From: Parahoeflea halophila | GTDB taxonomy: Bacteria > Pseudomonadota > Alphaproteobacteria > Rhizobiales > Rhizobiaceae | Reading direction: 5' to 3' | Assembly (NCBI RefSeq): GCF_900220985.1 | Contig: NZ_OCPC01000003.1 | Location: forward strand, 496,001-560,000 | DNA: 64,000 bases | In this document: positions 6,194-9,072 of the stretch, piece by piece | Numbering within the stretch: position 1 is the first letter of the stretch | Layout of the letters: every line of letters begins with the position of its first letter | The notes under the pieces: model-generated | Seen by the model: only the letters and a program-made list of their open reading frames with translations | What the model was told of the DNA's origin: nothing | Database searches by the model: none | Translations under genes and position numbers: made by a program

Positions 6194-8362
6194 TCAGCCC
6201 GCGATGCGGGAAAAATCGGCGACAGCGCCGGTGGCCTGACGGATCATCGCGAGCAACGCCAGCCGGTTGGCACGAACCGAGTCGTTTTCGGCATTAACCA
6301 GCACCGCCTCAAAAAATGAATCAACAGGTTCACGCAACGTCGCAAGTGCGCTCATGGCGGCGGAATAATCTTCGCTTTCAATGGCTTGAGTTGCCTGACT
6401 GACAGACTGATTCACCGCCGCGAAGAGCTTCTTCTCTTCATCAAGCTCGAACAGGGACGGGTTTACCGATTCGGCAACCGCCGTCCCCTTCTTCTCTTCA
6501 GCTGCAAGAATGTTGGCGGCACGCTTGGTTCCGGCCAGCAAGTTCTTGCCGTCCTCGGTGTCGAGGAATGCACCGAGAGCTTCGACACGGCGGGTGATAT
6601 CCAGAAGATCATCGGACTCGGCCGTGATCACCGCGTCGATAAGATCGTGGCGGGCGCCCTGATCGCGCAGATAGACTTTCAGGCGGTCGTGGAAGAAGAA
6701 GAGGAGGTCGGTAGCCAGACCTTCAGGCGCAGCTTCCACCCGCTTCTGGCTGACAAGAGATTCCAGGCTCTTGGCAATTTGCGACAAGAGATCCAGCTCG
6801 ACGGCATTTTCGACCAGAATCCGGATCACGCCCAGCGCAGCACGGCGGAGCGCATAGGGATCCTTCGAGCCTGTGGGCTTTTCGTCGATGGCCCAGAAGC
6901 CCACGAGCGTGTCGAGCTTGTCGGCCAGAGCGACCGAAATCGAGACCGGGTCGGTCGGCACCTTATCGGACGGACCCTGCGGCTTGTAATGCTCCTCGGC
7001 GGCCAGCGCGACGCTCTCGTTCTCGCCCTGAAGGCCGGCATAGATGCGCCCCATGACGCCCTGCAGTTCGGGAAATTCGCCGACAACCTCGGTGGTCAGG
7101 TCGGCCTTGGCGAGCATGGCGGCACGGGTGGCGAGTTCCGGATCGGAGCCGACGACAGGCGCAAGTTCCGCAGCCAGCCTGGCGATGCGCTCCACGCGTT
7201 CGCCCTGGGTGCCCAGCTTGGCATGGAAGGTGACGCCCAGCTGATCGAGCTTGGCCATGCGCTGGTCGAGCGGCTTGGCCAGATCAAGCCCGAGCTTTTC
7301 AGCCGACGCTGTCAGCTTGTCGCGGTCGGGCAGATCGGCCTGGTCGGTGTTCCAGAAATAGAGCGCATCGGACAGGCGCGCTCGCACCACCTTGGCGTTG
7401 CCAAGCGCGATATCCTTGCCGCCGTCGCTGGCCTCGATGTTGGAGACCAGGACGAACTTGTTCGACAAGCCACGACCGGGCTTTCTCAGCACGAAGCATT
7501 TCTGGTTGGTCTTGATGGTGAGCCGGATGATGTCGTCGGGGATCTCGAGAAAATCCTCCTCGAACTCGCCCATCAGCACCACGGGCCATTCGACCAGGCC
7601 GGAGACCTCGTCGAGCAGGCCTTCGTCCTCGACCAGCTCGAGGCCTGACGCGAAAGCCAGATTGCGGGCGTCCGAGGCGATGATCTCCTTGCGGCGCTCG
7701 GCGTCGAGAACCACGTGCGCGCGCTCGAGCTTTTCGGAATAATCATCAAAGCGGCGCACGGTGAAGCTGTCTGGCGCGTGGAAACGGTGGCCGGACGTGG
7801 TATTGCCGGACACAAGCCCGTCGATCTCAAAAGCAATGACTGTCGGCTCTTCGGTTTCCGGACCGAAAGTGCAGATGATCGACTGCAGCGGACGCACCCA
7901 TCTGAGCGAACCGGGCTTGGACGAGGCCTCGCCCCAGCGCATCGACTTGGGCCAGGAGAAGCCGCGAATGATGCCGGGCATCACCTCGGCAATGATTGCT
8001 TCCGCATCGCGGCCGGGTTTGGAGATATGAGCGACGTAGAAATCGCCCTTCTTCGGATCGGTGTGCACATGGGCTTCGGAAATGTCGTTGAGCCCGGCCT
8101 TGCGCATGAAGCCGGCCAGAGCCTGTTCCGGCGCTTTGGTCGACGGGCCCTTGATCTCCTCATGCACATCGGCCGATTTCGGAGTCAGGCCGCGGATATC
8201 AAGCGTGAGCCGGCGCGGAGTCCAGTATTCGCGTGCTGCCTCATAGGTGAGCCCGGCATCGACCAGCGCATCGGTGATGGACTTGCGCAGATCGCCGGCA
8301 GCCTTGCGCTGCATGCGTGCGGGTATCTCTTCGGAGCGAAGTTCAATCAGAAGATCGGGCAT
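6194..8362 (-). CDS. glyS: Glycine-tRNA ligase beta subunit
   Basis: Beta subunit of the alpha2beta2 glycyl-tRNA synthetase, which charges tRNA(Gly) together with GlyQ (13456-14409). The N-terminus ([20 protein letters not shown]) is the family signature and the protein is full length at 722 residues. The start at 8362 has GGAG 8 bases upstream. The first 16 codons are repeated 128 bp upstream (8443-8490), out of continuity with the gene, so two near-identical start regions exist. The alpha gene lies about 5 kb upstream on the same strand, with four unrelated genes between. The fasciclin gene directly upstream ends in its own terminator, so glyS probably has its own promoter in the region around 8363-8510 or relies on readthrough. 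Confidence 0.95.
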
Positions 8363-8490
8363 CAGTATTGCTCCACCATGGTGCTGCGCACGCTGTTTCC
8401 ATGCTTGCCCGTCCTCGCGGCTCCGCCGCTGCGGGCGAGCGGGCGTGCGGGTATCTCTTCAGAGCGAAGTTCAATCAGAAGATCGGGCAT
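8315..8490 (-). repeat. Tandem partial duplication of the glyS 5' end
   Basis: A 48 bp segment encoding the first 16 residues of GlyS occurs twice in direct orientation, at 8315-8362 (the start of the full gene) and at 8443-8490, offset by 128 bp. The copies differ at one base (TTCGGAGC against TTCAGAGC on the plus strand), a silent change. An 80 bp segment lies between them. Confidence 0.95.
8362..8490 (-). CDS. 42-codon reading frame from the duplicated glyS start (upstream ORF)
   Basis: The upstream copy of the glyS start opens a 42-residue frame: 16 residues identical to the GlyS N-terminus, then 26 unrelated residues that are Arg/Gly/Ala-rich. Its TGA overlaps the glyS ATG as TGATG, an arrangement typical of translational coupling. 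A purine-rich GGAAAG lies 4 bases before this ATG. It is either a decaying remnant of a duplication or an expressed leader peptide that feeds ribosomes to glyS. It is too short to act as a synthetase subunit. Confidence 0.45.
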
Positions 8491-8509
8491 GGCACTTTCC
8501 AGAAAACAG

Positions 8510-8544
8510 ATTTCGGGCGGGACTTAGCAAGCCCCGCCCGAAAT
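8510..8544 (-). terminator. Terminator after the fasciclin gene
   Basis: A perfect 12 bp stem (8510-8521 with 8533-8544) around an 11-base loop is followed on the minus strand by CTGTTTTC. It lies 42 bp after the fasciclin stop codon and about 20 bp before the upstream glyS start copy. The T tract is short, so termination may be incomplete. Confidence 0.7.
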
Positions 8545-8586
8545 GTCATCCATCGATTGCCACATATGCGTGGCCGGTGCCGCTGA

Positions 8587-9072
8587 TCAGCTTGACGGCA
8601 GCATGACCGTGTCAATGACGTGAATGACGCCGTTGTCGGCCTTGATGTCGGCCTGAACCACAGTGGCATCGTCGACGGTCACAACCGCGCCGGACTTGGC
8701 GACAGCCAGCGTGCGGTCGCCACCGGACTTGATGGTGCGAACATGAATCGGCCCGGCAGGAAGCTGGTTGGACACGAGTTCACGCGGCAGCACATGGTAG
8801 CTCAAGATCGCGGCCAGCTTGTCCTTGTTTTCGGGCTTGAGCAGATCTTCGACGGTACCGGCAGGAAGTTTGGCAAATGCGTCGTCGGTAGGTGCAAAGA
8901 CGGACAGGTTTTCGCCTGTGGCCAGTGCATCTGCGAGACCAGCGGCCTTCGCGGCAGCCAGCAGAGTTCCAAACACGCCTGCTTCCTTTGCGGTCTCAAC
9001 GATGTTGGCGGCGTTGGCTGCCGGCGCGGAAAGGGTGAGCACCATAGCGGCGGCAAGAAGGGACTTTCTCAT
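8587..9072 (-). CDS. Exported fasciclin (FAS1) domain protein
   Basis: A 161-residue secreted protein with one FAS1 domain, a fold linked to adhesion and cell-surface interaction. The ATG at 9072 has GGAGAA just upstream and opens a signal peptide (residues 1-21, ending in ANA). The domain shows both conserved blocks: NLSVFAPTDDAFAKLPAGT (H1) and the C-terminal GVIHVIDTVMLP (H2), with LSYHVLP between. It sits alone between the DUF2207 gene and glyS and has its own terminator, so it may be a later arrival in the glyQ-glyS interval. Confidence 0.9.
   Translation of the reverse strand: MRKSLLAAAMVLTLSAPAANAANIVETAKEAGVFGTLLAAAKAAGLADALATGENLSVFAPTDDAFAKLPAGTVEDLLKPENKDKLAAILSYHVLPRELVSNQLPAGPIHVRTIKSGGDRTLAVAKSGAVVTVDDATVVQADIKADNGVIHVIDTVMLPSS

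What the first reader, a model, noticed from the sequence alone, without database searches (positions are those of the whole stretch)
8315..8490. Tandem duplication of the glyS start with an overlapping 42-codon frame
The first 16 codons of glyS occur twice, 128 bp apart and one silent base different. The upstream copy opens a 42-residue frame whose TGA overlaps the real ATG (TGATG). Selection to keep the copied 16 codons would be unexpected for a plain relic. The arrangement could serve as a translational-coupling leader, or the copy could have come from a slipped duplication during insertion of the 80 bp segment between.
Basis: seen in the sequence. Interest (0 to 1): 0.7.

Follow-up and report, generated by a model that had tools for sequence, protein, structure and literature searches.

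The report
Hairpin element duplicating ends of genes
The doubled start of this gene is one copy of what appears to be an undescribed small DNA element of rhizobia-like bacteria: it sits inside the ends of conserved genes and tRNAs, duplicates the gene end so the gene stays intact, and carries a short stretch complementary to its own target, which suggests a guided way of inserting.

Summary
The repeat is real: the first 16 codons of glyS occur twice, 128 bp apart, 47/48 identical, with a 42-codon frame ending TGATG. It is not a local slip. Between the copies lies a covarying hairpin (CCCGCAG..GAGGAC) with a linker, shared by many Rhizobiales: a covariance model matches 68 of 199 family genomes. 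In 74 of 84 evaluable matches it separates two copies of a gene terminus (15 of 106 random windows). Targets include glyS, hisF, hisA, cimA starts; ilvC, mmsA, sdhB, groEL ends; tRNAs. The window's genome has a second copy at hisF. About 12 nt after the hairpin lies a ~10-nt segment complementary to the target at the duplication junction (0 of 20,000 permutations); in some lineages both change together. At gene starts the upstream frame ends beside the true start in 62 of 70 loci, so translational coupling is plausible, but cannot explain copies at gene ends and tRNAs. Best reading: a miniature homing-like element with a guide-like segment that keeps its host gene whole. Mobility, enzyme and guide role are inferred. 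Six literature searches found no description.

The parts
8443..8490 (-). T1: upstream copy of the first 16 codons of glyS, behind the native leader
8436..8442 (-). 5' foot of the hairpin (CCGCTCG); five of its bases pair with CGGGC at the 3' side
8407..8435 (-). conserved hairpin CCCGCAGCGGCGGAGCCGCGAGGACGGGC; model match 67.6 bits, E 1e-16
8396..8406 (-). linker after the hairpin (AAGCATGGAAA)
8387..8393 (-). J': GCGTGCG, reverse complement of the end of T2 (CGCACGC, 8315-8321); in this copy it matches only the T side, 7 nt
8371..8377 (-). Shine-Dalgarno-like GGTGGAG ahead of the true glyS start (recognised by eye)
8362..8490 (-). 42-codon upstream frame opened by T1, ending TGATG at the glyS start
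8315..8362 (-). T2: first 16 codons of glyS joined to the gene body
6194..8362 (-). glyS, glycine--tRNA ligase subunit beta (722 aa)

Best explanation
This is one copy of a miniature, non-coding, homing-like DNA element centred on Rhizobiales. Shown: the order is T1 - hairpin - linker - J' - T2 - gene body. T1 and T2 are copies of a gene terminus, mostly about 40-50 nt (only about 12 nt at tRNA-Ile), and J' is about 10 nt complementary to the uninterrupted gene across the T/body junction. Shown: it occupies a limited set of conserved gene and tRNA ends, leaves an intact gene on the T2 side in the loci examined, forms head-to-tail arrays, and is patchily present with clean empty sites. Inferred: the hairpin plus linker is what a trans-acting enzyme recognises; J' directs it, by pairing, to the cognate site; and the gene-terminus copy keeps the gene working. 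At gene starts, T1 takes the native translation signals and the true gene is then translated by coupling to the T1 frame (inferred from the stop/start overlap). Losses probably occur by recombination between T1 and T2.
For: Hairpin covariation 0.316 vs 0.143 shuffled and 0.03-0.06 slid (42 of the 65 stretches listed). All 13 stretches with the strict pattern in the collection of 84,980 species lie at glyS starts or mmsA ends of Rhizobiales (order judged from the record names). Model: 68 of 199 family genomes. Gene-end repeat (12 or more of 14 bases) in 74 of 84 evaluable matches vs 15 of 106 random windows. J' complementarity: own score 8.7 vs 4.7 with other genes' junctions, 64 loci, 11 targets, 0 of 20,000 permutations; on the mostly new loci 58 of 74 score 7 or more vs 6.9% of cross-gene pairs. 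The best match starts 10-16 nt after the hairpin in all 64 loci. Paired changes on near-identical linkers: mmsA L080/L172, hisA L114/L115. Presence changes at least 8 times on a tree of 20 glyS genes, 17 of them same genus, with a clean empty site in G004 beside occupied G006 and G014. Arrays of up to 4 hairpins.
Against: No mobility was seen and no enzyme was identified or looked for in the neighbourhoods. Searches of plasmids, phages and viral contigs gave no autonomous form. The window's segment does not fold more stably than shuffled sequence (z -0.47, 55 of 200 shuffles as good). Tails look homologous across the genus, so most glyS copies there may be one old insertion with many losses rather than repeated gains. 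Where the target varies, J' follows it 45 times but keeps the gene consensus 43 times; in glyS and hisF it lags (6:10, 3:10). In the window's own copy J' pairs only with the T side. rnhA and CaiB J' scores are 6, and in 16 of 74 loci J' scored under 7. In 10 of 84 matches no clear gene-end repeat was found.
Confidence: 0.5

Rival explanations
1. A miniature integrative element of the tyrosine-integrase type: T is the identity block between element and chromosome, T2 is the gene-restoring fragment carried by the element, and J' is an extra inverted core-binding site rather than a guide.
For: Targets are the kind of site integrases use (recalled): tRNA ends and ends of conserved genes. Copies can be identical across T with unrelated flanks (L113, L074, L105). 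T1/T2 differences in glyS are mostly silent, as if both came from working genes.
Against: One conserved hairpin serves more than ten unrelated target sequences, which a single integrase would not be expected to recognise. No gene lies between the two copies in the loci where a repeat was found.
Confidence: 0.22
2. A cis-regulatory leader: the T1 frame and hairpin control translation of the downstream gene through coupling, and J'-J pairing masks the start.
For: The stop of the T1 frame lies within -6..+5 of the true start in 62 of 70 start-type loci. T1 of glyS keeps its protein sequence (111 silent: 9 replacing).
Against: The same element in opposite orientation at 3' ends of genes and tRNAs has no start to control. 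cimA (3 of 7), rnhA (0 of 1) and two hisF loci do not show the overlap, and T1 is not kept in hisA (6:17) or cimA (9:17). The hairpin-coded peptide is read in different frames in different loci. Repeated loss in one genus suggests it is dispensable.
Confidence: 0.13
3. A by-product of replication template switching at hairpins: foldback copying makes J' and the T duplication, and nothing is guided.
For: J' plus T duplication resembles an inverted-copy junction. Arrays show that the region recombines.
Against: Does not explain one hairpin sequence at many genes, the near-constant hairpin-to-J' distance, or paired changes of J' and J on near-identical linkers.
Confidence: 0.12
4. A plain relic of a slipped tandem duplication, or an assembly artefact.
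For: A direct repeat is present.
Against: A second copy at hisF in the same genome and the same hairpin in 68 of 199 genomes.
Confidence: 0.02

Closest known systems
REP / RPE palindromic elements, including CGTC-tagged REPs (Di Nocera et al. 2013, PMC3733652)
   Same: Short palindrome in alphaproteobacteria, some inside genes, read from one strand as CGTCCTC + stem; no dedicated transposase known.
   Different: CGTC REPs have 8-9 bp stems almost invariably with AT pairs in the first two positions and predominantly head-to-head dimers; REP families range from thousands to 20-100 units or fewer (passages read), and 'duplicat' has 0 occurrences in that text. Here: 1-5 model matches per matching genome, gene-end duplication, target-complementary segment.
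Integrative elements that restore the end of a tRNA or conserved gene (recalled)
   Same: Targets at gene and tRNA ends; terminus duplicated so the gene stays whole; arrays.
   Different: No gene between the copies, about 55-86 nt besides T in single-hairpin copies, one hairpin for many different targets, complementary J'.
Homing introns and group I internal guide sequences (recalled)
   Same: Conserved sites in conserved genes, patchy presence, a segment complementary to the joined target on both sides of the insertion point.
   Different: Splicing cannot apply in both orientations relative to the gene; gene kept by duplication. An intron fold was not tested beyond the Rfam scans.
Guide-RNA mobile elements: IS110 bridge RNA, TnpB/IscB omega RNA (recalled)
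   Same: Structured scaffold next to a short programmable-looking segment that matches the target.
   Different: No nuclease or recombinase gene between the copies; DNA or RNA nature of the guide untested; target left intact beside the element.

Membership tests
CGTC-tagged REP | 8-9 bp stem with AT pairs in the first two positions, loop of 4-5 | tested here: not met
   Inner stem 5 bp (2-3 bp in short forms), nearly all G+C, plus a separate outer stem and conserved internal loop, against the description in PMC3733652
CGTC-tagged REP | predominantly head-to-head dimers | tested here: not met
   1-5 matches per matching genome; clustered copies are head-to-tail
Integrative element | carries an integrase gene between the duplicated ends | tested here: not met
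   Repeat spacing mostly 87-163 nt, up to 200 with double hairpins; neighbourhoods beyond the copies were not searched for integrases
Integrative element | gene or tRNA terminus restored by duplicated block | tested here: met
   74 of 84
Guide-directed mobile element | segment complementary to the target at a fixed place in the element | tested here: met
   16 of 74 loci score under 7
Guide-directed mobile element | target choice depends on that segment | not testable with these tools
   needs a mobility assay
Known structured RNA family | match to an Rfam model | tested here: not met
   Window 8300-8600: only matches below gathering scores; 10 loci: only rRNA and tRNA
Translational-coupling leader | upstream frame ends at the downstream start | tested here: met
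   62 of 70 start-type loci within -6..+5: glyS 35/36, hisF 20/22, hisA 4/4, cimA 3/7, rnhA 0/1
Translational-coupling leader | always ahead of a start codon | tested here: not met
   ilvC, mmsA, sdhB, groEL and tRNA 3' ends

The most novel reading that the evidence does not exclude
A class of minimal mobile elements in which a conserved hairpin scaffold plus a ~10-nt pairing segment is the whole element: a trans-acting enzyme uses the segment as a guide (RNA or single-stranded DNA, perhaps as a primer-binding site for reverse transcription) to insert beside a cognate gene end, and the duplicated terminus makes the insertion harmless.
Probability: 0.35. Interest if true: 0.95.

Novelty: categorically new. 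Interest (0 to 1): 0.85.

Why it matters
If J' is a guide, this would be an extremely small guided insertion element, and its unknown enzyme would be a candidate tool for placing DNA at chosen sites without breaking the gene. Even if it is not, it is a widespread structured repeat in Rhizobiales, for which I found no description, that reshapes the ends of conserved genes, creates short coupled upstream frames, and can confuse start-site annotation and assembly.

Tried and rejected
Rejected: chance or assembly error (see observation check). Rejected: simple 128-bp tandem duplication, since the flanks of the two copies are unrelated. Rejected as general function: translational coupling. Rejected: Rfam family; CGTC-REP membership. 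Considered and left open: tyrosine-integrase mini-element, template switching, group I-like guide.

Led nowhere: folding of the window's segment (55 of 200 shuffles fold as well, so single-sequence stability is no evidence; the structure rests on covariation). Viral contigs (5 stretches, none with a gene-end repeat; L157/L158 share a similar hairpin, looked at only). Plasmid and phage blastn gave weak partial matches (90 and 9 records); I looked at two plasmid hits only: NZ_CP040819 (L181), a real copy at tRNA-Ile outside Rhizobiales, and H6 (L180, Shinella), with no gene-end repeat. Class-level strict pattern 0 of 337, a weak test, since the window's own two copies do not match that pattern either. 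Looser pattern at class level 4 of 289: the window's genome, G517 of the same order without a T repeat, and two genomes outside the order without the same arrangement (L154, L155). Paper searches: (listings and abstract starts only); PMC3733652 was read in part (section 0 part 1 and passages).

Counts to read with care: loci are not phylogenetically independent. The pattern searches miss variants (CCCGCAACGG in G006 and G014; the foot variant of L041), so one search's 49 of 394 misses real copies and also holds chance matches with no gene-end repeat (L069, L076, L082, L094, L119-L123). In one search, 14 loci showed no such repeat (by my reading). The frame test was first done on part of the loci (33 glyS loci, 11 hisF) and missed two hisF loci that go against it; one search repeats it on all loci the script could recognise. 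There I counted hisF loci printed with two start codons (L065, L149, L259) once, giving 22 loci and 56 silent: 27 replacing; L111 counts once with its GTG start. Not counted: L041, L136, L273, L108 (frame ends at -6) and the CaiB locus L126 (-2), because no T1 passed the script's limit or the motif was not recognised; seven further glyS loci seen (L193, L201, L205, L240, L253, L266, L282) were not picked up by the script either. In one search a few anchors are doubtful (L057, L218, L219, L272, L276, L278). For one search I gave 87 of the 113 matches (one per array as a rule); 3 were not evaluable, and at least two (in L194 and L207) repeat loci seen before. A repeat of 12 of 14 also turned up in 15 of 106 random windows, so a few of the 74 may be chance (for example L276, L278). 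The alignment holds 42 of 65 stretches. The first tree count (7 changes) used wrong states for G006 and G014 and was corrected (G035 left out; G005 judged absent from 27 bases of leader; G016 set as present from a separate contig).

Full report
OBSERVATION. The 48-nt repeat at 8315-8362 and 8443-8490 is real (47/48), with one silent difference. The frame 8490..8362 is 42 codons and ends TGATG at the glyS start. The downstream gene is glyS. The flanks of the two copies are unrelated, so this is a 48-nt repeat around an 80-nt insert, not a 128-nt tandem duplication.

SAME THING ELSEWHERE. Several relatives of the same genus show the same layout and others lack it. In the window's own genome a search with the glyS leader led to one second place: the start of hisF, also duplicated, with the same hairpin between the copies and the frame ending ATGA at the hisF start. 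A hairpin pattern then hit exactly these two places in the genome. Family, order and class pattern searches gave 49 of 394, 28 of 297 and 4 of 289 genomes. Nine loci of the family search and 14 of the order search, and the class hits other than the window's genome, lacked the gene-end arrangement. So the element is centred on Rhizobiales. A strict pattern over the collection of 84,980 species gave 13 stretches, all Rhizobiales by name, all at glyS starts or mmsA ends; for one of them, L163, the repeat is weaker and shows. One copy outside the order is at tRNA-Ile of Paroceanicella profunda.

TARGETS. Starts: glyS, hisF, hisA, citramalate synthase (cimA), rnhA, a CaiB-type CoA-transferase, and the 5' part of a tRNA-Met that I take for the initiator (recalled). 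Ends: ilvC, mmsA, sdhB, groEL, tRNA-Ile, tRNA-Gln. Protein identities are from NCBIfam on one representative each, tRNAs from ARAGORN on eight loci. The hairpin points into the gene, so it lies sense at starts and antisense at ends.

HAIRPIN. Forty-two aligned copies give a two-part stem with invariant CCCGCA and GAGGAC sides. 90.1% of cells pair, 7 of 10 pairs have changes on both sides, and covariation is 0.316 against 0.143 shuffled. The window's segment alone does not fold better than shuffles. A covariance model matched 68 of 199 family genomes. I fetched places not yet held and located 113 matches in 84 loci. Of 87 matches tested, 84 could be evaluated; 74 have a repeat of at least 12 of 14 bases across the hairpin, against 15 of 106 random windows. 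Rfam has no match at gathering scores.

COMPLEMENTARY SEGMENT. After the hairpin and a linker of about 10-16 nt lies J', the reverse complement of the gene across the T/body junction (about -5 to +5). In 64 loci of 11 targets the own-junction score averages 8.7, against 4.7 for junctions of other genes (2854 pairs); one representative per gene, permuted, never reached the observed sum in 20,000 trials. The later loci repeat this: 58 of 74 score at least 7, against 6.9% of 4750 cross-gene pairs. J' and target change together in some lineages: mmsA CCCCAGACG/CGTCTGGGG against CCCCGGACG/CGTCCGGGG on near-identical linkers (L080, L172), and hisA CAATGC/GCATTG against CAGTGC/GCACTG within one genus (L115, L114). 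Overall J' follows a changed target 45 times and keeps the gene consensus 43 times, best in ilvC (9:1) and mmsA (22:15), poorly in glyS (6:10) and hisF (3:10). In the window's own copy only 7 nt on the T side pair.

FRAMES AND SELECTION. At starts, the frame opened by T1 runs through the hairpin and stops within -6..+5 of the true start in 35 of 36 glyS loci (the exception, L102, has a double hairpin and an N gap), 20 of 22 hisF (exceptions L137, L138), 4 of 4 hisA, 3 of 7 cimA (the others at -17 to +8) and 0 of 1 rnhA. T1 and T2 of glyS differ by 111 silent and 9 replacing bases in codons 2-14; hisF 56:27; hisA 6:17 and cimA 9:17 as printed; mmsA 16:6, and the distal ilvC copies show no silent bias. 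So T1 is clearly kept as coding only in glyS. The hairpin-coded part of the peptide is read in different frames, so a conserved 40-aa peptide is unlikely. Mostly silent T1/T2 differences fit either selection on T1 or two termini that each came from a working gene.

GAIN AND LOSS. On a tree of glyS bodies the state changes at least 8 times among 20 rows, 17 of them same genus (several forks are weakly supported). G004 has a clean empty site with a leader like those of the occupied G006 and G014. Tails look homologous across the genus, which favours an old insertion with repeated precise loss there. Arrays of two to four hairpins (G016, G061, G073, G082, G216, G292) show that the repeats recombine.

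INTERPRETATION. Shown: anatomy, hairpin, complementary J', limited targets, intact genes where examined, patchiness. Inferred: mobility, the guide role of J', a trans-acting enzyme, coupling at starts. The nearest ideas are gene-restoring integrative elements and homing elements for behaviour, REP/RPE for size, and guide-directed elements for J'; none fits on all tested points. I call it categorically new on anatomy. If J' proves to be an extra integrase core site it would drop to a new variant of integrative elements.

LITERATURE. Six searches found no description in the open library; subscription papers are mostly missing from it. PMC3733652 was read in part.

Noticed in passing
8510-8544: An inverted repeat around a conserved TTGCTAAG lies upstream of T1; a TGAC..TTGCTAAG pair recurs in the leaders of many same-genus genomes and may be the glyS promoter (read by eye).
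   Followed up: no
glyS residues ~406-409 and ~529-548 (window 6194-8362): Several same-genus relatives carry in-frame insertions at these places in GlyS, with open frames of about 760-890 codons; three were read as protein and were not analysed further.
   Followed up: no
L257 (G236), L145, L102, L131, L136, L138: Hairpins repeated two or three times with no gene-end copy between them (period about 40-50 nt), as if units had shrunk or the hairpin multiplied alone.
   Followed up: partly
L154 (G932), L155 (G715): Outside the order, CCCGCAGCGAAGCGAGGAC lies in other settings (in L154 inside a repeat of 148 nt) that are not this element.
   Followed up: no
L157, L158 (viral contigs): Two related ~7.7-7.9 kb viral contigs share a hairpin with the same core near a GC-rich stretch and TAATACTACG; could be a phage feature or coincidence.
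   Followed up: partly
L220, L221 (G144): Two places of one genome carry the same element with the same score beside what reads as the tRNA-Met start, so duplicated tRNA genes may share it.
   Followed up: no
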